Source of the DNA: Choricystis sp. odSpoLacu1
Taxonomy: Eukaryota; Chlorophyta; Trebouxiophyceae
Length of the DNA: 64,000 nucleotides
Assembly: GCA_958009055.1 (NCBI GenBank)
Contig: OY253655.1
Span: 496,001-560,000, forward strand
Direction: 5' to 3'
Below are positions 35,191 to 49,514 of this stretch, piece after piece (the first letter of the stretch is position 1; every line of letters starts with the position of its first letter). Below the pieces are notes generated by a model. It was not told the DNA's origin. It ran no database searches and was given only the letters and a program-made list of their open reading frames with translations. The position numbers and the translations under genes are program-made.

Positions 35191-35964
35191 ATGTCGCCAC
35201 CCCTCTGGCTCCCCGACCGCGCCACGCTCGGCCCGTCGCTGGACGCGCTCGCGGCCGGCGCGGCCGCCCCTCGCGCTCAACTGACGGCAACCGCAGCGGC
35301 CGCCGTCGAGTTCCTGCGCTCTCTCGGAACGGCGGAGGTAATTCACACATCCGCCGGCGCGTTTTCCGACCATTTGGTGGGCCTGTACGACGTCACCCGC
35401 TGGTGGAACCTGCCCACCGTTTACTGCGACGCCGCCCTGCTGCACTCGATCTACGGCACCGAGGGTTTCCAGGGTTTCTCCCTCCCAGCTGGACTGACCG
35501 AACGCGCGGCAGTCATCGACCTGGTGGGAGCAGACGCTGAACGCGTGGCCTTCATCTTTTGCGGGCTGGACCGCGAGTCCCAGGACGCGGGCGTGCTGGC
35601 GGGCGACAGCACGACGGCACCGTGGCGTCCGCGCGCGTGTGCGCCGGGCGGCGCAGACGCGTGGCACACCGCGGTCGCAGAGGCCAACGCGGCCGACCCC
35701 GCCTTCTGGCGCCACTTCACCGCGCTGACGCTGGCCGACTGGATGCAGCAGGTGGAGGACGCGAGTCGTGTCGCATCAGACTACTTTGGGTGGGGCGTGG
35801 GGCAGGCGTGGGGGTACAGGCGGAGGGCGTATGCAGCGATGGCGGCGACGCTGGGGGGGGACGCGGCAAGGATGCATGCGGCGGTGATGGCGCGGGAACC
35901 AGAGGGCAGCAAGCAGTTTGAGTGGGTGGGGTGGGGGGAGGCGGGGCCGCCGGAGGGTGTGTAG
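35191..35964 (+). CDS. DUF6817-like protein, HD-type His/Asp motifs
   Basis: Single exon, 257 residues, function unknown. The middle matches from memory the DUF6817 pattern: HTSAGAFSDHLVGLYDVTRW, then NLPTVYCDAALLHSIYGTEG. Spaced His/Asp residues (H, DH, D, HS) recall an HD-domain metal site. A hydrophobic N-terminal region and a C-terminal helix-rich part (FWRHFTALTLADWMQQVEDA, ASDYFGWGVGQAWGYRRRAY) complete it. No targeting signal is obvious. DUF6817 proteins are known mainly from bacteria, so the eukaryotic copy merits a database check. Enzyme activity is not claimed. Confidence 0.6.
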   Translation: MSPPLWLPDRATLGPSLDALAAGAAAPRAQLTATAAAAVEFLRSLGTAEVIHTSAGAFSDHLVGLYDVTRWWNLPTVYCDAALLHSIYGTEGFQGFSLPAGLTERAAVIDLVGADAERVAFIFCGLDRESQDAGVLAGDSTTAPWRPRACAPGGADAWHTAVAEANAADPAFWRHFTALTLADWMQQVEDASRVASDYFGWGVGQAWGYRRRAYAAMAATLGGDAARMHAAVMAREPEGSKQFEWVGWGEAGPPEGV

Positions 35965-36482
35965 AAGAGAGCGAGAGTTGAGAGAAGCCTCCAAAACGAG
36001 CTCTCGTTTTGCGGGCGTCGTTTGAAGTCGTCTCTCCCGCGTCCGCTCGCGCGCCCAATTCACGCCCCCTCCTCCCTCTCCGCCCCCCTCCACGCGTGTC
36101 CACTGTCCTTGCCTCTGACGTGAGCAGCTGGTTACGCGCGGCGGGAGCGCGCGCCAGGGAAACACGCACACAGGTGAGTGCAGTTGAATGAAAGCACCCC
36201 CTGGTTGGCCGCGTCACAGGCCTCGGACGCGTCGTGGAAGGCGGTCTTGGCAACTTATGGTGCTGAAATGTCCCGCGCTCCCGAGATCTCGTGCGCGATT
36301 GCCGTCAGCGAGGCGGGCGGTGCTACATCGTGTTGTTTTTCGGTCCCGCAAATTCGTCTCATCCTCGTTCCCCCCCCCACACGCCCCCTCCCTCTCCAGC
36401 CGTCTGCTCGCTGACCTCCTGTGTGCGCCACCCACGAGGCACGCGGCACGCGCCCGCTGTGGTGTGCTTGCGTCCCTGAAAC
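35965..36482. other. Spacer before the secreted-paralogue array
   Basis: About 520 bases, with a small unsupported open frame at 36009-36191. It holds the 3' UTR of the DUF6817-like gene and the promoter of paralogue 1. Nothing else recognised. Confidence 0.4.
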
Positions 36483-39096
36483 ATGTCCCACATGTGCGCC
36501 CATCTCTTCCTCCTGCTGCTCGCGGCAGCCGCGGCCCTGCCCGCCCCCGACGCCCCCGTGCTGACTGATGGAGCCGACACAGCGGCTGCCCGGGCGGGAG
36601 CGGCGGGCCTGGGCCTGGCTGCCACCGTGGTCGAACCCAGCGCGGTCGAAGTAGCGCCGCGCGTCGACGCGGCGGCCGTGCCCCGCACCGCGCCACGCGG
36701 CGCCGGCCGCGGCACGAAGCCTGCTACGGGGGCTGCCAAACCAGCACCCAAGGCAGCTTCGCCCGCCGCCGCGCCGCGCGCCGAGAAACCGCCGGGCGCC
36801 CTGCGCGAGGACGGCGACGGCGACGACGGACCTCCCTTCAACAAAGCGTTCCCCTCGCCCACGGGGCGTGGCGTGGCCCGGTCGGGAGGGCCTGTGGGCA
36901 TACTGTCTCTGGGTGCGTCGCTGCCTGAACTGTATGATCCTGCTGTGGGTGGGCGCGGCCTGTCGCCCGCGCGCGCGGCCAAAGCCGCCAAAGCGCCCAC
37001 CCTCTCCTTTGCCGCCAAGTGGGCGGGCGCGGCAGCCGCCCGCATCGTCGGCCTGGCGGACGACATGCAGGCCGCCGAAAACGAGACGCCCGACCCACGG
37101 CGCGAGTCGCTGCTGACCGCGGGGTTGGATCCTGCCAAACCAAACCGCCTTGGCGCCAAGCTGGACGACGTCCCCGTCGCCAAAGCCACCCCCGTGGAGG
37201 TGCTGGCCAGCGCGGTGCTGCCGCCCGACCAGGCGGCCGCGTCGAGGCTGGTGATTCGCAACGGCTCCGCCCCCGCGCGGCTTGGCTTTGCTGCAGGCGC
37301 CGCGGTCGACCAACCCACCCGCCGCTTCCGCCCGCCCGACCAGTCGCTGTGCGTCGGCGCCGGCACCGTCATCACGGGCAACAACCTGGTGCTGCGCACG
37401 TTTAATGCAACCACGGGCGACCCGATTGATGGGCCGATTGACCAACCCTCCTTTTTTAAAATGACGGGCAACTTTTCGGATCCCGGCTGCATCTTCGACG
37501 CCGACACCCGCCGCTTCTTCATGTCCCTGTTCCGCTTCAATGAAGCGCCCACCGGCAAGTACTCCCAGTACATCGTGGCCGTGTCCAAAAGCTCCAACCC
37601 GTCTGACGGGTGGTTGGGCCCCTATGTGTTTCGCAACGATGGCCTCGACGCCGCTGGCAAGACCCCCCTCCCCGGCCTGGAAAAGTGCCGGGGGGACGCC
37701 GACATGGAGGCGGGGTGTCTCGGCGACTACCCCTCCATCGGCCTGGACGCGCACTCGCTGTGGGCGGGGTTCAACCTGTTCAAAGACGGGGAAGGGTATG
37801 CCGGGTCGCTGATGCTGGCGATTTCGAAACCCGACCTTCTCTCCGGCGCCGCCTCCACCCCCGCCCACGCCGTCTACTCCAACTGGAATATGGAGCTGGC
37901 GTACACGGTGCAGCCCAGCGTGACGCAGGCGGGGTCGGCGCACGACGCGGGGCGGGGGGGCACGATTTATTTCGCGTCCACCGCGCCCGTTGTGCAGAAC
38001 GAGCCCAACGTGCCCGCCCTGGCCACATGGGCGGCCACGGGCACGTCCAAACTGACCGCCCCCGACTTTCCCAAGGGCGGCCTCCCTCTTACCTCAAACT
38101 GTGCGTTGCTGGACACGCCCGCGTACCGCGATCCCGGCGTCTTCAAAGCGCGCAAGCTGGGGGTGGTGCAACCCGCCCCCGGGTTTCCACTGGATGGGGG
38201 GGACGCGCGCACCCTGCAGCACATGTGGTCGGGGGGCGTGCTGTGGACGGCGGCCCAGACGGTGAGTGGGTTGGTTGAGGGGGAGAACAAAAGAAGAAGA
38301 GGGAGCGCGCGCGCAAAACCAACACACACACCTCAATCCCCACCACCCCACCACGCAGGTCATGTACGTCGGCTCCCGGGACGCCAACCTGACCATTGGC
38401 CCCACCTACTTTGCGGTCATCCCCTCGTTTTCGCCCGCCGGCGCCTACACCCCCCGCCTCGTCGCAGCCGGCTACGTCGGCGTCGCCGGCCGCTTCCTCG
38501 GCCGCCCCGCCATCACCGCCTCCAGGACGGGGGTCGCCTATATCTCGGCCTACATGAGTGGGCCCGACTTTCACATGTCTCCCGCGATCGCAGAGGTGGA
38601 TTTAGTCACGGGCCCCCGCCGCGTCATCGTGCCGGCCCGCTCCCCCGGCCCCCTGCAACCCTCCACCGTGGACCGGCTGTGGAGGGCGGGCGATGTGGGT
38701 GGTGGCGGCACCCTACGCGTGGGCGACTACAGTGGGGCCACCCTGGACGACGAGGGCCACGCGTGGCTGGCCTCAGAATGGTCGGGCGGCGTGCCGTCGG
38801 CGCTGTGCGCGGAGGCGTATGGACCCGCCAAGTGCCCCAACTGGTCCTCCTTTGTGACGCGCGTTGATTTGGCGCCGGCGACGGGGCCGCTGGCGTCCGC
38901 GCGCGCGCCGCCCGTCGCGTCTTTCGCGAGCGACACCGACGCCACCGACGCCGACGCCGACGACCCCGACGTCGCGGTGGGAGGTTCCGCGGGTCCGCCC
39001 GCCCCCGGGTCCAGCATCGATGAGAGGCTGGGGCCGGTGGCGTACTCGCCGGACGACATCGTGGAGGCTGCAGAGGAAGAGGAGAGGAAAGGGTGA
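36483..39096 (+). CDS. Secreted propeller-like paralogue 1 of a tandem triplet
   Basis: Large extracellular protein of unknown function, about 838 residues. Exon 1 36483-38261 and exon 2 38359-39096 join in phase 0 (AAQT then VMYVGS). Signal peptide: MSHMCAHLFLLLLAAAAALP. A disordered Ala/Pro/Lys-rich part follows, then blocks shared with the next two genes: DPAVGGRG, AVDQPTRRFRPPDQSLCVG, ITGNNLVLRTFNATTGDPI, GNFSDPGCIFD, GCLGDYPSIGLDAHSLWAGF, NMELAYTVQPS, TPRLVAAGYVGVAG, and GDYSGATLDDEGHAWLASEW with KCPNWSSFV. The DYPxxGxDxxxLxxxxN and GDYSxxxxDxxGxxWxAxE patterns recall bacterial secreted beta-propeller proteins. An acidic tail ends it. Only this copy has the internal intron. Confidence 0.8.
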
Positions 39097-39486
39097 AACG
39101 TGAAGCATTCTTTTTTTGTTTATTTAGGGCGAGAAAATGCTGGGCTCTTCTTTCATATTTTGGCGCCCCTACCTTCCTGGAGAGAGGGACGAAGTGGCGG
39201 GTGAGTGACAACGGTGGTGCGTGCTGTAAAACGCGACCAACCCCAAAAATCAAACCACCTCTGTCCGACAGTCGTGCGCGCATCCGCACGCCCCCTCTCC
39301 CCACCTCGTCCCGGCCTCGGCACCCGGCTGGGCACTCGCTGTACCTCGCCCGCGCACACGCGGCGCTTGGCGCGCGCCAACTGCCGGAGCGGCGGACGCT
39401 TTTTTCTATTCGCGAGCGCGCATCGGGCGATACAGGCGCGGCAGTGACGCCCGCCGTCCCCGTCGGCCACCCCCATCTGGCCCCCC
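39097..39486. other. Spacer between paralogues 1 and 2
   Basis: 390 bases with T runs after the upstream stop. It must contain the paralogue-1 3' end and the paralogue-2 promoter. No gene seen and no clear similarity to the next spacer. Confidence 0.4.
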
Positions 39487-42066
39487 ATGCGCGCCCGCAC
39501 CACCCACCTGCTGGCCCTGACGGCGGCCCTGGCCGCCGTCGCGACCACCGCCCACGCGTCCGCCCTGCATGCGCCACGCGTCACCGTGGCCACCGTGTGG
39601 CGCCGGTCTGGGCGGGCCGCGTCCAGGGAGAGCCTGGCGGGACTGACCCTGGATGCCGACGAAGGCGAGGACGAGCTGACCCAGGCGGACGCGGTGCCGC
39701 CCACTGACGACGCGTTCGGCGCGGCGCGCCCTCCGTCGTCCGACCCGTCGCGCCGCGGCGCCACCCCCGAGAAAAAGGCGCCCCCCAACTCCAAGGCGTA
39801 TGTGGGCGACGACATCGACACTGCCAACCCGCCCTACAACAAGGCGTGGCCGTCGCCTGCGATGGTCGGCTTTCCTCCGCGCGGTGGCAAAGTTGGCGAC
39901 CTGTCGCTGTCCTCCTCCCTGCCCCCCGAGTATGACGCCGCGGTCGGTGGGCGCGGCACCTCGCCCAAGGGAAACACGGGGCGCCAGTCCGTGTTTGCGG
40001 CCGCGCGCCACCGCCGGGAGGCGGCTGCGCGGCGCGCGCGCGGTGCCGACGCGGAGCCGGAGGATATTATGGCGGCTGAAACAGAACGCCCCCGCCCCCG
40101 CAAGGAGACAGTCCTCACTGCTGGCTACAAAGTGTCTGAGCCCAATGCGTATGGCGCCAAACCCGATGACGTGCCTGTGGTGTCGCCGTTGACAGTCGAA
40201 GAGCCGGGCGCGACCCCTGCGTCTGCTGCCGACGCGTCGCGCTTCGTCACCACCAAAGGCAAAGCCCCCTTTGACCTGGCGTTTGCGGGGGGGGCCGCCG
40301 TGGACCAACCCACCCGCCGCTTCCGCCCGCCCGACCAGTCGCTGTGCGTGGGGGCGGGCGTCGCGTTCACGGGCAACAACCTTGTTCTGCGCACGTTTGA
40401 TTCAAACACGGGCGTCCCCATCCAGGGCCCCATCGCCACCCCCGACTTTCTGGGGTTGGACGGCAACTTTTCAGACCCGGTGTGCGTGTACGATGAACCC
40501 GACACGAAGAGGTTCTTTTTCTCCATCTTTCGGTTTGCAGAGGGGTCCCCCGGAAAATACTCAAACTTCATCGTCGCCGTCTCCAAGACGAGTAACCCGG
40601 CCGACGGCTTCCACGGACCCTACGTCTTCCGCAACGACGGCCTGGACAAGGATGCAAAGCCACTTCCCGGCCTGGAGGACTGCGCGGGGGGTGGGCCGAC
40701 CAAAAACAACAAGGGCACCGTCTCCCCGGGTTGCCTGGGCGATTATCCCGCCGTCGGCCTCGACTCCCACGCTCTCGTGGCCACGTTCAACCTGTTTGTG
40801 ACGGAGCCGTCTGAAAAGTATGCAGGCGTTTTAGGGATGGCGGTGTCTAAGAAGGACCTGCTGGCAGGCAAGATGGCTGAACCGCGGTACGTGACCTACT
40901 CCAACTGGAACGCTGAACTCGCGTACACGGTGCAACCCACCCAGACGCAGCCCGGGACTCCGCACGAGACGTCGCGGGGGGGCACGCTGTATTTGGCGTC
41001 CACGGGGCCCGTCACACAGAACGAACCAAACGTTCCCACGCTCGCGGTGTGGGCGTTGACCAACACATCACTTTTGACCGCCCCTGATTTCCCCAAGGCC
41101 GGCGTCCCCACTCTCTCGCGTGTCGCCCTGGTGGAGACGCCCGCCTACCGCGACCCGGGCGCGTTCAAGGCCGAGCGGCTGGCCATGGCGCAGCCACTGC
41201 CCGGCGTCCCCCTCGACACGGGCGACGCGCGCACGCTGCAGCACGTGCTCTCGGGCGGCGTCACCTGGGTCGCCGCCCAGACGGCCATGCACGTGGGCCG
41301 CGCGGAAGCCCCCGTAAGCGTGGGCGTCGCCTACTGGGGGCTGCTGCCCGGGTGGTCGTCGCCTGATGCTAATGCCACGTTCACACCACGGCTCGTGGCA
41401 GCCGGCTATGCGGGCCTCCCCGGCGGCCGCTCCCTGGCCCGCCCCGCCATCACCGCTACCAAGGACGGCACCGCCTGGATCGCCGCCTTTGCGACGGGGC
41501 CCAACCTGGCGCCGTCCCCTGTGTTTGTCGAGATTGACATGGTCGACGGCCCAAAACGCGCCCACATGCCCGCGCGCGCGCCGACACCCCTCCTGCCCTC
41601 CATCCCCGACAAAAAGTGGAAGGGGGCCAATGGAGCGGGCACGCTGCGCGCTGGTGATTACTCCGCCGCGTGTCTGGACGACAAAGGCGCCGTGTGGTTG
41701 GCCACAGCGTGGGCGGGGGGCGTGCCGTCTGCGCCGTGCGTCGACAAGTTTGGGGTCGCCAAGTGTCCGTCTTGGTCCTCCTTTGTGGGGCGGGCCAGCG
41801 TGCCGGCGCCCGCGGCGGGCGCCCCCACCGCGGCGGTCAAGGCGGCTGGCATCAAGGGGCCGACGATGCCGAAAGGCTCTGCAGGGCCCGCCGTCCCCGG
41901 CACGCGCGCGGGCGAGTGGGCCGCCAAAGCCGCCAAAGCGAGGGAGGCGGAGCTGGCGGCGGCTCAAGCGCCGGCTGCTGCGGTCGTGTTTGACTACGAC
42001 CCCGACGACGAGTGGGAGGGCGCGGTCGGGCCGCAGGGCGCGCCGGTGGACAGGAAGGGTCCGTGA
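39487..42066 (+). CDS. Secreted propeller-like paralogue 2 of the triplet
   Basis: Intronless paralogue of 859 residues. Signal peptide: MRARTTHLLALTAALAAVAT, followed by an acidic/Pro-rich linker. The conserved blocks keep the order of copy 1: DAAVGGRG, AVDQPTRRFRPPDQSLCVG, FTGNNLVLRTFDSNTGVPI, GNFSDPVCVYDEPDTKRFFF, SKTSNPADGFHGPYVFRNDG, GCLGDYPAVGLDSHALVATF, NAELAYTVQPTQTQPGTPHE, TQNEPNVPTLAVWAL, TPRLVAAGYAGLPGG and GDYSAACLDDKGAVWLATAW with KCPSWSSFV. The C-terminus is Ala/Glu-rich and acidic. The site that carries an intron in copy 1 reads straight through here (AAQTAMHVGR). Extracellular site is inferred from the leader; molecular function is unknown. Confidence 0.85.
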   Translation: MRARTTHLLALTAALAAVATTAHASALHAPRVTVATVWRRSGRAASRESLAGLTLDADEGEDELTQADAVPPTDDAFGAARPPSSDPSRRGATPEKKAPPNSKAYVGDDIDTANPPYNKAWPSPAMVGFPPRGGKVGDLSLSSSLPPEYDAAVGGRGTSPKGNTGRQSVFAAARHRREAAARRARGADAEPEDIMAAETERPRPRKETVLTAGYKVSEPNAYGAKPDDVPVVSPLTVEEPGATPASAADASRFVTTKGKAPFDLAFAGGAAVDQPTRRFRPPDQSLCVGAGVAFTGNNLVLRTFDSNTGVPIQGPIATPDFLGLDGNFSDPVCVYDEPDTKRFFFSIFRFAEGSPGKYSNFIVAVSKTSNPADGFHGPYVFRNDGLDKDAKPLPGLEDCAGGGPTKNNKGTVSPGCLGDYPAVGLDSHALVATFNLFVTEPSEKYAGVLGMAVSKKDLLAGKMAEPRYVTYSNWNAELAYTVQPTQTQPGTPHETSRGGTLYLASTGPVTQNEPNVPTLAVWALTNTSLLTAPDFPKAGVPTLSRVALVETPAYRDPGAFKAERLAMAQPLPGVPLDTGDARTLQHVLSGGVTWVAAQTAMHVGRAEAPVSVGVAYWGLLPGWSSPDANATFTPRLVAAGYAGLPGGRSLARPAITATKDGTAWIAAFATGPNLAPSPVFVEIDMVDGPKRAHMPARAPTPLLPSIPDKKWKGANGAGTLRAGDYSAACLDDKGAVWLATAWAGGVPSAPCVDKFGVAKCPSWSSFVGRASVPAPAAGAPTAAVKAAGIKGPTMPKGSAGPAVPGTRAGEWAAKAAKAREAELAAAQAPAAAVVFDYDPDDEWEGAVGPQGAPVDRKGP

Positions 42067-42593
42067 AGTGAGCGTGTGTTTTTTCCTTTCTCAAAAAGTC
42101 TGCGACTTTCCTTTCCCCCCTTTTTTCTTGCTGCTGTTTGCTGATCTTCAGTCCCGTGATTCCTTTTTTGTGACCTCGTGAAGAGCAAAAAGGGGCCCGC
42201 TTTTTTGTGTTGGCGAGACGAGACAAAGACAGCCGGCGAGAAGAAAACTCACCCACGCGCGTTTGTTCGCACAACCGCGCGCACCCCTCCCCTCCGGCCC
42301 CCACCCTCGAGTGGACACTTTGGGGATCGACAACCGTCGACTCTCGAGTCGACGCGCCGAGGGAACGCGCGTGTAGCGAGCACCCAAACTCGCGCGCGCG
42401 ATTGGGGCCTTGGCAATTGCGCGTCGATTCAAAGCACTTGCCACCCTCCTACCCCCGTAACTTTTACTCACCTCGCTGCGTCCCCTCATTTAACTCTGAG
42501 CAAGGTGGGTGGGGGGCGAGGCGCGGAGCGCAGCTGTTGGAAAACCAGCGATTTGCGCGCGCGCCCAACTCCCTTCCCCCCCCAACCATCAGC
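42067..42593. other. Spacer between paralogues 2 and 3
   Basis: About 530 bases. It includes a short palindromic stretch, tcgacaaccgtcgactctcgagtcga (42328-42353), with nested TCGA motifs, and otherwise T/C-rich DNA. No gene seen. Confidence 0.4.
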
Positions 42594-45216
42594 ATGTCTC
42601 GCCGCGCCCCCGCCCTCCTACTCCTGACCCTGCTCGCCTGCCGCGGCGCCATTGCCGCGCCTCGCCTTCCCTCGCGCGAAACCCTGGTGGCGGTGGCCGC
42701 CGACCAAAAAGCGGCCGCCGACGCGGAGTGGGCGTCGCGCGACGCGCGGGAGGCGGAGCTGGAGGCCGCCCGCGCGGCGGTCGAGAAAGCGCGCAAAGCT
42801 GAAACCCCCGAGGAACGGGAGGAGCGGGAGGAGAAGGAGGAGGAGGAGAGAGAGCATGCTGAACGTGCGCTCAAGAAGCGTGCCGCGGCCGCGCGCGCGC
42901 GGCCGCGGCGGCAGCTCCGTCCCCCGTCTTCATCGAGGGCGGCCCAGATGATGGTGATGATGATGGTTCACAGGCTGTGCCGGGCGCCGAGGCGCCGTCG
43001 GCGGCTGCGTCCGCCCCCGGCCCGTCCCCCCGCCGCCGCGCCCCCCGCCTGCGCGCGTCCGACGTGGCAGGCACCGCCTTCCCCGGCCCCTTTCGCGGGG
43101 CCAACGCGTCCGTGGCGGCGCCGTACGTGACTCCCACGCCTGCGGGGGGGCCGGCTGCCGGCACCAAAATGAACCTGGACGCTGTTCTCACTGAAGATTA
43201 CGACCCTGCCGTCGGCGGCCGCGGCCTTCGCAAGGGCACCGCCCGCGCGGAAGCCTCCCCCGACGCCCCCCCGCCGCGCCCTCAACAAGGATAGCGTCAT
43301 GAGCGAGGAGGGGGAAAACAACCGGCCCAAGCGGGTGATCAAGGCGGCGTCCGCGCTGGAAACAGCCAACGCGTTTGGCGCGCTGCCGGGGGATGTGCCG
43401 GTGGTTGCCCCCACGCCTCTGATCGATGCTGGCGCCGCCCGCCCCGCCACCTCCTTAGACGCCTCCCGCCTCGTCCTGCCCCCCAACGACACGCTGTGGG
43501 CGTTTGCGGCGACGGGGTCGGTCGACCAGCCCGCGCGCCGCTTCAGGCCGCCCGACCAGTCGCTGTGCGTGGGGGGGGGGGGTCGTCATCACGGGCAACA
43601 ACCTGGTGCTGAGGTCGTGGAACGCGACCAATGGGGAGCCGCTGCAGGGGCCTGTCTCCCCACAAGACTTTTTTGGTGTGTCGGGCGACATGTCAGACCC
43701 CGTCTGCGTCTTTGACGCGTCCGACACGCGCCGCTTCTACCTGGCCATCTTCGCCTACGCCGACACCCCCATCAAAAAGTCGGAGTTTGTGGTGGCGGTG
43801 TCCAAAACCGAGGATCCGGCAGACGGGTGGCTCGGACCCTACATCGTTCGCAACGATGGCCTCGACGCGCACGGCGCCGCGCTCCCCGGCCTCGAAGCCT
43901 GCGCCCTGACCCCACCCCGCCAACCCGGCTGCCTGGGCGACTACCCGTCCATGGGCATGGATGCGCATGCGCTGGTGATAGGGTTCAATTTGTTTGGCGA
44001 CGGGTACGCGGGCGTCCTCGTGCTCGCCCTCTCCAAAGCCTCCCTCCTGTCGGGCGCGTCCTCCCGCCCCGCATCCGCCGCCTACACCAATTGGCCGCCT
44101 GATTTATCGTACACCATTCATCCCACCGCGACGCAGGCCGGCACGCCGCACGACCCTGAGCGCGGCGGCACGCTGTGGATCGCCTCGACAGGACCGGCCA
44201 CCCAGAACGATCCCAACGTGCCCGCGTTGGCGGTGTGGGCCATGACCAACACGTCGTCCTTGGCGTCTGCCTCTTTCCCGTCTGACGGGGTGCCGGTTGT
44301 GCACCCGCCCGCGTTGATGGCGACGCCCGCGTACCGCGATCCAGCAGCAGCCGACCCGCCGGTTGCTCTCACCCAGCCTGCCCCCGGTTCCCCCCTGGAC
44401 ACGGGCGATGGGCGCACCCTGCAGTCCGTGTACAGTGGGGGGCTCATTTGGGCCGCGTCTCAAACAGTGGTGCGGGTGGGGGACGCGAACGCGGCGCAGA
44501 CGATCGGCACCGTTTACTTTGCTGTCCAACCGCGCTGGCGTGGCTCGTCCTTCACCCCCCGCCTCGTAGCCACCGGCTACGCCGCCCTGGCTGGCACCCA
44601 CCTGGCCAGGCCCGCGATTACAGCGACGGCGTCAGGGACGGCGTTCATCGGGGTGGTGATGACGGGGGAGAAAGTCAATCCAACGCAGGCAGTCGTTGAA
44701 GTGGACCTGGTCAAGGGCCCGGTCGCGGTGCGTGTGCCCGCCTACTCGCCCAGCATTCTGTACCCACTGACTCCAGATGAACTGATGGAACCAAAAAGCG
44801 AGGGCAAGGGCTACTTGCGGGGCGGAGACTATGGTGCGGCCTGCCTTGACGACTCCGGCGCGGCCTGGACCGCGGGCGAGTGGTCGGGCGGCGTGCCCTC
44901 CGCTGGCTGCGTCTCCAAGGACGGCAAGGACAGGTGCCCCAACTGGTCCACCATGGTGGTGCGGTCACGGGCGAGCGAGGAGGGGGAGGGGGTGAGAAGC
45001 GCGGCGGGCGGGGCGGCGGTCGACAGGATCGCGAGCGTGCTGACCGGGGGGCGCCTGCCTGCTGTGGGCCGGTGGGGGGGGGACCCCGTGCGGGCGGCCG
45101 AGTCGGCGCCCAAGTGGTTGAAGAATGGGGTTAGCCGCAAGGAGGAGGAGAGGGAGGAGGAGAGGGAGGAGCGGCGCCGCGCGCGCACGGCCGTGGCACG
45201 CGACGACCGCGACTGA
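42594..45216 (+). CDS. Secreted propeller-like paralogue 3, frame broken at repeats
   Basis: Third paralogue, about 870 residues if the frame breaks are ignored. Signal peptide: MSRRAPALLLLTLLACRGAI. A coiled-coil-like Ala/Glu/Arg region absent from the other copies follows. Conserved blocks are DPAVGGRG, FRPPDQSLCVG, ITGNNLVLRSWNATNGEPL, GCLGDYPSMGMDAHALVIGF, TQNDPNVPALAVWAM, TPAYRDP, TPRLVATGYAALAG, and GDYGAACLDDSGAAWTAGEW with RCPNWSTMV. The tail is Glu/Arg-rich. The frame changes at three places: a GC run (42891-42900), a seven-C run (43266-43272) and a twelve-G run (43571-43582). Protein similarity to copies 1 and 2 continues on both sides of each, which favours sequencing error over a dead gene. 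Confidence 0.72.
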
Positions 45217-45386: not shown

Positions 45387-47278
<1,892 letters not shown>

Positions 47279-47752
47279 GTGTGCCGCGGCGGAGACACAC
47301 GAGGCGCCCGTGATGCGGCGCGGGGAGAGGAAAAAAGAGAAGAGTTCTGCAGCGGGATGGGGGCGAGTTTTTCGTGTGCTTTCCGACTCCCCACTTTTTT
47401 CTCCCACATAGAACGCGATGTATACGTGGTTTCTTTCACAGCAGGTGTCACTACATTAAGGCCAGGGAGTCGCGGATTGATTGAGTCAAAAAGCGGGGGG
47501 GCCGTGACAGGTAGAAAAAAGGGTAGGGGGGAGAGGGCAAAAAAAGGTTACGTGGGGGGTTCGATCAAGGCGTGCGTCGCACCCGGTGTGCGCCCTCGCA
47601 GAAAACAAGGGCGCGGTGGGCGGGTGTGGGAAGACAAAACAGGTTGAAAGTGTGGAGACGCGTCGAAAACGCGCCCCTCTTTTTTCTTTCCCTCTCCCTC
47701 ACTTGCCAGCAGGCGCCGGCGCCGCCGCCTCTTTCCCCGCCTTCAGCGGCTA
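47279..47752. other. Spacer between the two glycosidase genes
   Basis: 475 bases with an AT-richer part (47380-47540). It holds the promoter of copy A and the 3' UTR of copy B. No gene seen. Confidence 0.4.
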
Positions 47753-49514
47753 CTACGTCGGCGGGTTGCCCCACAGCTGGGACACATAGTCAAACGAGCG
47801 CTTGGGGTAGCGGGTCTGCGTCTTGTAGTCCACGTACGTCAACCCAAACCTCTGCTTGTACCCTTCCGCCCACTCCAGGTTGTCGGAGAACGACCAGGGG
47901 AAGACGGTGGTGATCGGGGCACCCTCTGCCTTGGCGTCGGCGGCGGCCTTGATGTAGTCGCGGTAGTAGTCGACGCGGCAGGTGTCGTTGAGCACAGCTG
48001 GCAGCCCAATGTTGTCTTCATTGGGGCATGCAATGCCAAACTCCGTCACAGCCATGTTGCCGGGGTTGTACCGCTTGTTCAGGTAGACGAGGGCGGATTT
48101 GAAGCCCCACGGCACAGAGTAGAGCCATTCAGGCTCCCCGCGCGGGCCGATCGTTTTACCATTCAGCTCCGTCAACCCATCATAGTCCGCCACCCCCAGC
48201 CCATCGGGTTGGGTGGCGCCCTTCCTGTCCTTCACCCAGCGCGTGGTGTAGCCGTTGAAGCAGTAGAGCGTTTGGGACCCCTTCAGGTCGGCCGCCAGTT
48301 TGGGGGAGATCGTGCCGAGGCCGGCGGGGGCGCGGTCGATGATGGATTGGGGGTACCTGCCGAGGTAGATGGGGTCGGCAAACAGGCCGTAGTGGTAGTC
48401 GCGGTGGCGTTGTGCGGCGTCGAGATCGGCCTGAGAATCCGACGCGGGCTCCCCCCACTCGCCATCCAGGTTCATGCAGATGTCGCCACCCGGCACCTTG
48501 GCTTTAAAGTACTTGAACGCGGCCGCGTGCGCCTCCAGCACGTGTTGGACACACTTCCAGGCGGCCTCGACTGATTTGGTGCCCGGGGCGTGGACGCCGA
48601 TTCCGTAGCCCAGGGTGCAGAACGTGCGCGGCTCGTTGAACGTCGACCAGTGCTTGATGCGGGGGCCGAACTCGGTGAAGACGAGGTCGGCGTAGGCGGC
48701 AAAGTCGTCGACGATTTTCTGTGGGTGGGTGGGGGTGGGGTGGGAGGGTGGTGAGACGGGAGGGTGAGAGAGGGAGCGTCGAGACGTCACCATCACACAA
48801 CATCCCGACTCACCGGGCTCGTCCAACCGCCATACTTGTCGTGCAGGGGTTGGGGCAGGTCCCAGTGGCTGTCGTGTGGGGGGTGGGGGTGTGGGAGTGT
48901 GGGTCGCCCGTTTTTGCCACAACCGCGCGCAGCTCCCAACACACACCACTCTCCCTCCCTCCCCCACACACTACTCACTACAGCGTGACCCAGGGCTCGA
49001 TGCCGGCGGCGTCCAGCGCGTCAAACACTTTTTTGTAGAAGGCGAGGCCTTCTTTGTTGGCGGCCCCTGTGCCGGAGGGCTGGATCCTCGGCCACGAAAT
49101 CGACATGCGGAACTTTTTCACGCCTTTGGACTGCATCAACGCGATGTCCTCCTTGTACTTGTGGTAAAAGTCGATGGCGGTGTCGCCCGCGCCTTTCGAA
49201 AACGTGTCCCAGATCGACGCGCCGCGCCCCCCCTCCTTGGGCGCGCCCTCCACCTGGTACGCCGCGGTCGCCACCCCCCAGTCAAAGGGAGGGATGGAGG
49301 AGGAGGTGGTGGTGGTTTCAGGCGCCGCTTCGTGCAGGGAGCGAGCGGCGGCGGCTGGGGTGGGGGTGGGGGGTGAGGCGTGTGTGTGTGGGCCCCCGTT
49401 GCCGGAAGCTGCCCCCGTGTGAATCCGACAAAACTCTCCCAATCCACCCCACTCACTCGAGCCCAAAATGACGCAGGCGACGGCCAGGGCCGACGCAAAC
49501 CCCGAGCGCGGCAT
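47753..49514 (-). CDS. Family-1 glycosidase, copy B (TEFG nucleophile motif)
   Basis: Second GH1 gene. Exons are 49514-49457, 49354-48979, 48868-48814 and 48718-47753, joined in phases 1, 2 and 0. The first exon encodes signal peptide MPRSGFASALAVACVILGSS. Core: FDWGVATAAYQVEGAP, GASIWDTFSKGAGDTA, RMSISWPRIQPSG, VTLYHWDLPQPLHDKYGGW, then the acid/base motif TFNEPRTFCTLGYG and the nucleophile region MAVTEFGIACPNEDN. The usual TENG reads TEFG: the nucleophile Glu stays but Asn becomes Phe. The C-terminal part WSFSDNLEWAEGYKQRFGLT is normal. The intron after GGWTS is shared with copy A; the others differ. Probably an extracellular glucosidase with altered specificity. Confidence 0.9.

What the first reader, a model, noticed from the sequence alone, without database searches (positions are those of the whole stretch)
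36483..45216. Tandem triplet of large secreted proteins, apparently an uncharacterised extracellular family
Three adjacent same-strand genes encode proteins of about 840-870 residues with signal peptides and at least nine shared blocks in the same order, including FRPPDQSLCVG, GDYPxxGxDxH and GDYxxAxLDDxGxxW. The N-terminal linkers and tails differ strongly (Pro/Lys-rich, acidic, coiled-coil). I recognise no eukaryotic family. The DYPxxGxD and GDYS...W.A.E patterns recall bacterial secreted beta-propellers, suggesting ancient transfer or an overlooked surface enzyme or adhesin.
Basis: partly seen in the sequence, partly recalled or inferred. Interest (0 to 1): 0.75.

Follow-up and report, generated by a model that had tools for sequence, protein, structure and literature searches.

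The report
Bacterial-type secreted propeller proteins in alga
A very small alga carries three neighbouring genes for a probably secreted, propeller-shaped protein whose relatives found here are unnamed proteins of many bacteria and of a few related algae, so the gene was probably taken from bacteria and then multiplied; its job is not yet known.

Summary
Three same-strand genes encode one family: gene 1 (36483-39096, 838 aa, one intron), gene 2 (39487-42066, 859 aa, one exon) and gene 3 (42594-45216; three frame changes in C7, G12 and GC-repeat stretches, likely assembly errors). Cores are 53-59% identical; linkers and tails diverge. No Pfam, NCBIfam or PHROGs family and no solved structure matches by sequence in the members tested. 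Relatives at 24-33% identity occur in Chloroflexota, Acidobacteriota, Actinomycetota and Pseudomonadota; among eukaryotes I saw only Botryococcus braunii and unnamed alga-like metagenome proteins. The algal rows form one clade, and each window gene has its own counterpart among the metagenome proteins. A fourth, divergent copy lies elsewhere in the genome. Conserved Asp/Arg motifs sit at the starts of inner strands, suggesting a functional pocket. Best reading: a bacterial secreted propeller acquired by an ancestor of the Botryococcus-type algae, then multiplied, probably binding or acting on wall or matrix glycans. Transfer rests on distribution (the tree is unrooted); function is inference.

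The parts
36483..38261 (+). Gene 1, exon 1 (signal-like N-terminus, Pro/Ala/Lys linker, propeller into blade 5)
38262..38358 (+). Gene 1 intron, 97 bp, GTGAGT...ACGCAG
   Evidence: no transcript data here
38359..39096 (+). Gene 1, exon 2 (rest of propeller, acidic tail, stop)
39487..42066 (+). Gene 2, single exon, 859 aa; modelled
39847..39936 (+). Algal N-terminal block of gene 2 (residues 121-150, WPSP...LSLSSSLPPEYD); blocks 121-130 and 131-140 have mean pLDDT 88 and 91, 141-150 only 57; a similar block is visible in several alga-like proteins
40252..41817 (+). Propeller core of gene 2 (residues 256-777), strands grouped by me into seven blades
42594..45216 (+). Gene 3, frame changed three times; charged, coiled-coil-like N-terminus; core in the open frame listed from 43504
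42885..42915 (+). Approximate place of frame change 1 in gene 3 (GC-rich simple repeat)
43266..43272 (+). C7 run at frame change 2 in gene 3
43571..43582 (+). G12 run at frame change 3 in gene 3

Best explanation
The three genes are a tandem expansion, in a very small high-GC green alga, of a family of secreted seven-bladed beta-propellers that is otherwise bacterial (with a few archaeal members). An ancestor of this alga and of Botryococcus most likely acquired the gene from a bacterium, fitted it with algal N-terminal linkers, and duplicated it; the copies have been kept. The protein is exported, locked by disulfides, and presents a ring of conserved Asp/Arg/Pro motifs at the starts of its inner strands (top face). 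I think this pocket most likely binds or processes a glycan of the cell wall or extracellular matrix, while the divergent charged or Pro-rich linkers place each copy in a different part of that layer. Shown: family, copy number, conservation pattern, algal clade. Predicted: propeller fold. Inferred: direction of transfer, secretion, disulfides, glycan role.
Against: The tree is unrooted, so it cannot show direction by itself; the algal side has long branches and no identifiable donor. The C11 copy, though inside the algal side, is nearer by path to bacterial rows (best identity 34%, P0027) than to algal ones, so a separate origin is not excluded. Eukaryote coverage is limited: each protein search scored only about 8,000 candidates, and two of three gave few hits (4 and 9). 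No structural match is specific: CylK, WD40 and YncE propellers tie. No enzyme signature was found. No neighbour gene recurs in more than 6 of 80 loci. Secretion rests on N-terminal hydropathy and cysteine pattern. Gene 3 could be a decaying copy in this strain.
Confidence: 0.6

Rival explanations
1. The proteins are structural or adhesive wall/matrix glycoproteins: the propeller is an inert or lectin-like scaffold with no catalysis, and the linkers carry the function (cross-linking, hydroxyproline-rich).
Against: Bacterial relatives lack the long linkers yet keep the same Asp/Arg motifs, which argues for a conserved site in the propeller itself. I could not compare PSAP's sequence with this family.
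Confidence: 0.3
2. A metal- (calcium-) dependent or otherwise catalytic propeller enzyme unrelated to carbohydrate, for example an alkylating or lyase enzyme like CylK.
For: CylK is the best row by Z for gene 2 (18.7, 353 residues) and within 1 of the best for P0026 (21.0, 346 residues), with longer alignments than the WD40 and YncE rows beside it; CylK's active site lies between its N-terminal domain and the propeller top face (passages of PMC8916777).
Against: Ties with WD40 and YncE propellers; no sequence match to CylK at E<=10 with the family profile; no N-terminal calcium-binding domain in the Pfam scans.
Confidence: 0.1
3. Vertical inheritance: an old eukaryotic family lost in most lineages.
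For: The algal side has long branches and no identified donor.
Against: Would require loss in nearly all sampled eukaryotes; only one named eukaryote (Botryococcus) appeared in the three protein searches, whose reach was limited.
Confidence: 0.08
4. Bacterial contamination of the assembly.
For: Relatives are mostly bacterial and gene 2 has no intron.
Against: The triplet lies inside an 840-kb contig beside RRM, DUF6817, WD40 and GH1 genes; gene 1 has a GT-AG intron; the copies are closer to Botryococcus (41-43%) than gene 2 is to any bacterial hit (at most 33%); and a divergent copy sits on another contig.
Confidence: 0.01

Closest known systems
Unnamed prokaryotic proteins, e.g. P0026, Tengunoibacter L020, Dactylosporangium L069, Collimonas L075
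   Same: Same sequence family over the propeller and the same invariant motifs (PPDQ, SDPxC, GDxPxxGxD, RxGDYxxA...W); same fold predicted for P0026
   Different: Typically about 600-700 aa, without the long algal linkers and tails; algal forms add their own cysteine pair (751 and 760, each in 9 of 10 algal rows)
Botryococcus braunii Bobra.0137s0027 (P0010)
   Same: Only named eukaryotic relative seen, 42% identity over 89% of the query
   Different: One hit, branching before all three window genes; the source line gives no function
CylK/BrtB alkylating enzymes (7ROO, 7RON, 7FH6-8)
   Same: Seven-bladed propeller with active site at the top face; top or near-top fold match for CylK
   Different: 9-11% identity, no sequence match; calcium-binding N-terminal domain not detected
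Photorhabdus and Burkholderia propeller lectins (PLL, PHL, BP39L)
   Different: About 9-12% identity; not compared by sequence motif
GH33 sialidases and GH43/GH62 enzymes
   Same: Foldseek's best PDB rows (E 1.2e-5 arabinanase; 2.9e-6 sialidase), and in BFVD a Satyrvirus exo-alpha-sialidase (E 4.6e-8)
   Different: Five or six blades (recalled); TM-scores on the query of those best rows 0.20, 0.32 and 0.29; no Pfam match; no strict Asp-box motif

Membership tests
Unnamed bacterial secreted propeller family (this report) | Profile match over the propeller | tested here: met
   51 hits P0024-P0074 at 24-33% over 71-97% of the core; all 12 algal rows given were matched by the A2 profile, which itself contains three algal sequences
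Unnamed bacterial secreted propeller family (this report) | Invariant motifs at inner-strand starts | tested here: met
   D330 and D419 in 135 of 135 prokaryotic and 10 of 10 algal rows; D283 in 133 of 135 and 8 of 10 (rest gaps); D724 in 133 of 135 (rest gaps) and 10 of 10
Unnamed bacterial secreted propeller family (this report) | Export signal | tested here: inconclusive
   Hydrophobic N-termini by hydropathy and by eye; no signal-peptide program
Seven-bladed beta-propeller fold | Seven four-stranded blades closed by an N-terminal strand | tested here: met
   Prediction only: strands grouped by me; nearest chains
WD40 (Pfam PF00400) | Profile match to WD40 repeats | tested here: not met
   No WD40 match at E<=1 in gene 1 exon 1, gene 2 or the gene 3 core; none in 26 aligned sequences at E<=0.1; no WD dipeptide in g1, g2, the gene 3 core, P0026 or P0010
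GH33 sialidase | Asp-box repeats SxDxGxTW | tested here: not met
   0 strict motifs in the 5 proteins examined, gene 3 only in its open frame
GH33 sialidase | Arginine triad and Tyr/Glu nucleophile at the centre | not testable with these tools
   No model coordinates available
CylK/BrtB | N-terminal RTX-like calcium-binding domain | tested here: inconclusive
   No such Pfam match, but CylK's own N-terminal domain is topologically unusual, so a divergent one could be missed
CylK/BrtB | Catalytic Arg105 and Tyr473 | not tested
   CylK sequence and model coordinates not at hand
Propeller lectins (PLL/PHL) | Sugar-binding pockets between blades | tested here: inconclusive
   Fold match only
Reg_prop (PF07494) | Pfam gathering score | tested here: not met
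   Gene 2: 12.5 bits against a cut-off of 20.4, residues 720-740
Botryococcus PSAP | Sequence identity to PSAP | not tested
   PSAP sequence not seen in the passages read

The most novel reading that the evidence does not exclude
The family is a new class of propeller enzyme (a glycan hydrolase, lyase or ligase with an Asp/Arg top-face centre), widespread in soil bacteria, taken up once by the Botryococcus-type algae and turned into a set of three or more matrix-building or matrix-remodelling proteins.
Probability: 0.25. Interest if true: 0.7.

Novelty: new member of a known kind. Interest (0 to 1): 0.48.

Why it matters
One scan found 298 loci of this family in bacterial and archaeal genomes, yet the members tested match no Pfam or NCBIfam model above chance. 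It appears to have passed into a lineage of very small algae and been kept there in several copies. If its activity were known it would say what many soil bacteria do outside their cells, and whether bacterial surface proteins helped shape the wall or colony matrix of the Botryococcus group.

Tried and rejected
Sequence match to solved structures: none meaningful for gene 2 (best E 0.24) or for the family profile (best E 0.27). PHROGs: none at E<=1 for gene 2 and P0026. Viral origin: none of 16 and 62 pattern-bearing stretches of viral contigs was confirmed as a relative; BFVD gives propeller matches, best a Satyrvirus exo-alpha-sialidase at E 4.6e-8 but TM 0.29 on the query, which I did not follow up. 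Bacterial operon context: 550 neighbour ORFs at 80 loci, the most recurrent clusters (two) in 6 loci each, three of them Collimonas in both. A protein search with the algal alignment gave 4 hits, one with the Botryococcus core 9. Plasmids: 5 of 72,556 records match, haloarchaea and Streptomyces, 22-26% identity over 76-79% of P0026, named 'hypothetical protein' in 4 and 'IPT/TIG domain-containing protein' in 1. Papers: 'RWGDYS' occurs in 0 held papers; searches on propellers, algae and gene transfer showed nothing on point in the listed titles and abstract openings. Antisense ORFs over the genes (e.g. 36255-37943) were set aside as by-products of high GC.

Organism: not named by any tool. The Botryococcus link, 14.6 Mb in 19 contigs and about 69% GC suggest the Choricystis/Medakamo group (Medakamo hakoo: 15.8 Mb, 72.7% GC; Medakamo and Choricystis form a clade sister to Botryococcus; passages of PMC9871001). 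This is inference.
Full report
WHAT IS THERE. The window is bases 496001-560000 of contig C7 (839,807 bp) of a 14.6-Mb, 19-contig genome, with about 69% GC in the window. Three genes lie head to tail on the + strand. Gene 1 (36483-39096) has one 97-bp GT-AG intron and encodes 838 aa. Gene 2 (39487-42066) is one exon of 859 aa. Gene 3 (42594-45216) spans about 870 codons, but its frame changes three times, in a GC repeat near 42.89 kb, at a C7 run (43266) and at a G12 run (43571). The frames that I assign to the last two pieces have third-position GC of 0.88 and 0.83, like genes 1 and 2 (0.83-0.87); the first two pieces are unclear (0.81 and 0.78, with first positions as high). A metagenome protein (P0004, 878 aa) shows the same blocks in the same order as gene 3, by eye, without a break, and is 69% identical to its open frame over 528 columns. 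I take the frame changes as likely assembly errors; a decaying copy is not excluded.

IS IT ONE FAMILY. Yes: core identities are 53-59% over 471-548 columns with 478-623 bits, against a best of 27.3 bits in 60 shuffles. The own genome holds one more, divergent copy on C11 (about 439.4-441.3 kb, minus strand, 29-33% identity), with an open frame of 815 aa and an N-terminus that looks signal-like by eye, although its most hydrophobic window lies elsewhere.

RELATIVES. The first protein search gave 74 proteins among 7993 scored candidates. P0001-P0023 are alga-like (my label), at 40-95% identity, several covering only part of the query; P0006 and P0007 are window-encoded and one is named, from Botryococcus braunii (P0010). 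P0024-P0074 match at 24-33% over 71-97% of the core; the two whose source names an organism are from Anaerolineales and Chthoniobacterales. A scan of bacterial and archaeal genomes found 298 relatives and kept the best 80: Chloroflexota 27, Actinomycetota 18, Acidobacteriota 18, Pseudomonadota 13, one each of Verrucomicrobiota, Myxococcota and Bathyarchaeota, one unassigned. Most titles are of metagenome bins, but others name strains (Tengunoibacter, Nakamurella, Kineosporia, Dactylosporangium, Collimonas). Weak relatives sit on 5 plasmid records of haloarchaea and Streptomyces, four annotated 'hypothetical protein'. No viral relatives were confirmed.

NAMED FAMILIES. No Pfam model reaches its cut-off in gene 1 exon 1, gene 2, the gene 3 core or seven relatives; among 26 aligned sequences one match at E 0.098 appeared. 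NCBIfam gave none for the three window pieces and one at E 0.041 among the 26. PHROGs gave none for gene 2 and P0026. No solved structure is a sequence relative. Gene 1 exon 2 was not scanned.

A CONSERVED FACE. Of residues 225-789, 78 are kept in 80% or more of 135 prokaryotic rows. They are concentrated in the inner A strands with the 4 preceding residues (26 of 75) against the B-D strands counted the same way (37 of 261) (p 1.7e-4). Strand borders are mine, some stretches overlap and the rows are related, so the p-value is a guide. They include PPD283Q, SD330P, GD419YP, P484, D580xR582, P653 and RxGD724Y, one motif per blade. In propellers the loop before the A strand opens on the top face (general knowledge), so these residues should ring the central opening there. 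D336 and D426 follow the A strand and are probably structural. I had no coordinates with which to check distances.

OUTSIDE THE CELL. Cys 287 and Cys 333, on neighbouring inner strands, are present together in 99 and absent together in 26 of 133 rows, with 8 exceptions; Cys 399 and 416 agree in 127 of 132. Relatedness inflates the p-values, but the pattern fits disulfides and export. Signal-like N-termini agree. No signal-peptide program was available.

HISTORY. In a tree of 80 rows (12 algal, 68 prokaryotic) the algal rows are one side of a branch (99*); in a careful tree of 35 rows (9 and 26) likewise (100/99*). Gene 1 pairs with P0003, gene 2 with P0002 and gene 3 with P0004 in both trees (99* or better), and Botryococcus branches before all three (95*, 97/82*). 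So the three copies most likely arose after the split from Botryococcus but before this alga parted from the sources of those proteins. The place of P0005, a further type, differs between the trees. The C11 copy has a long branch and is nearer by path to bacterial rows than to algal ones, so its shared origin is less sure. Two alga-like proteins (P0011, P0014) have the same longest-contig length, 173,040, which hints at neighbouring copies in another species.

SURROUNDINGS. Upstream are an RRM protein, a DUF6817 protein and a WD40 protein; downstream on the minus strand are two glycoside hydrolase family 1 genes or gene parts. This is no evidence of shared function. In bacteria no neighbour recurs in more than 6 of 80 loci.

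VERDICT. The observation and most of the interpretation stand. This is a real, unnamed family, predicted to be a secreted seven-bladed propeller, bacterial by distribution and multiplied in an alga. The role is open; a glycan-acting or glycan-binding surface protein is my best bet.

Noticed in passing
window 45669-48967 (minus): Two adjacent glycoside hydrolase family 1 genes or gene parts (Pfam PF00232, E 7.5e-117 and 2.5e-71); the second match starts at profile position 136, so an upstream exon is likely.
   Followed up: partly
window 35191-35964 (+): A DUF6817 protein (E 3e-20) just upstream of the triplet.
   Followed up: no
L087 (G000 C11 about 439.4-441.3 kb, minus): A fourth, strongly diverged family member; in the trees it is the deepest branch on the algal side.
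   Followed up: partly
window 43571-43582: A G12 run inside gene 3; the window has 87 G or C runs of 7 or more, so frame errors may affect other genes of this assembly.
   Followed up: no
P0005, P0008: A further paralogue type in metagenomes with a very long, charged N-terminal region; no separate counterpart was seen in the own genome.
   Followed up: no
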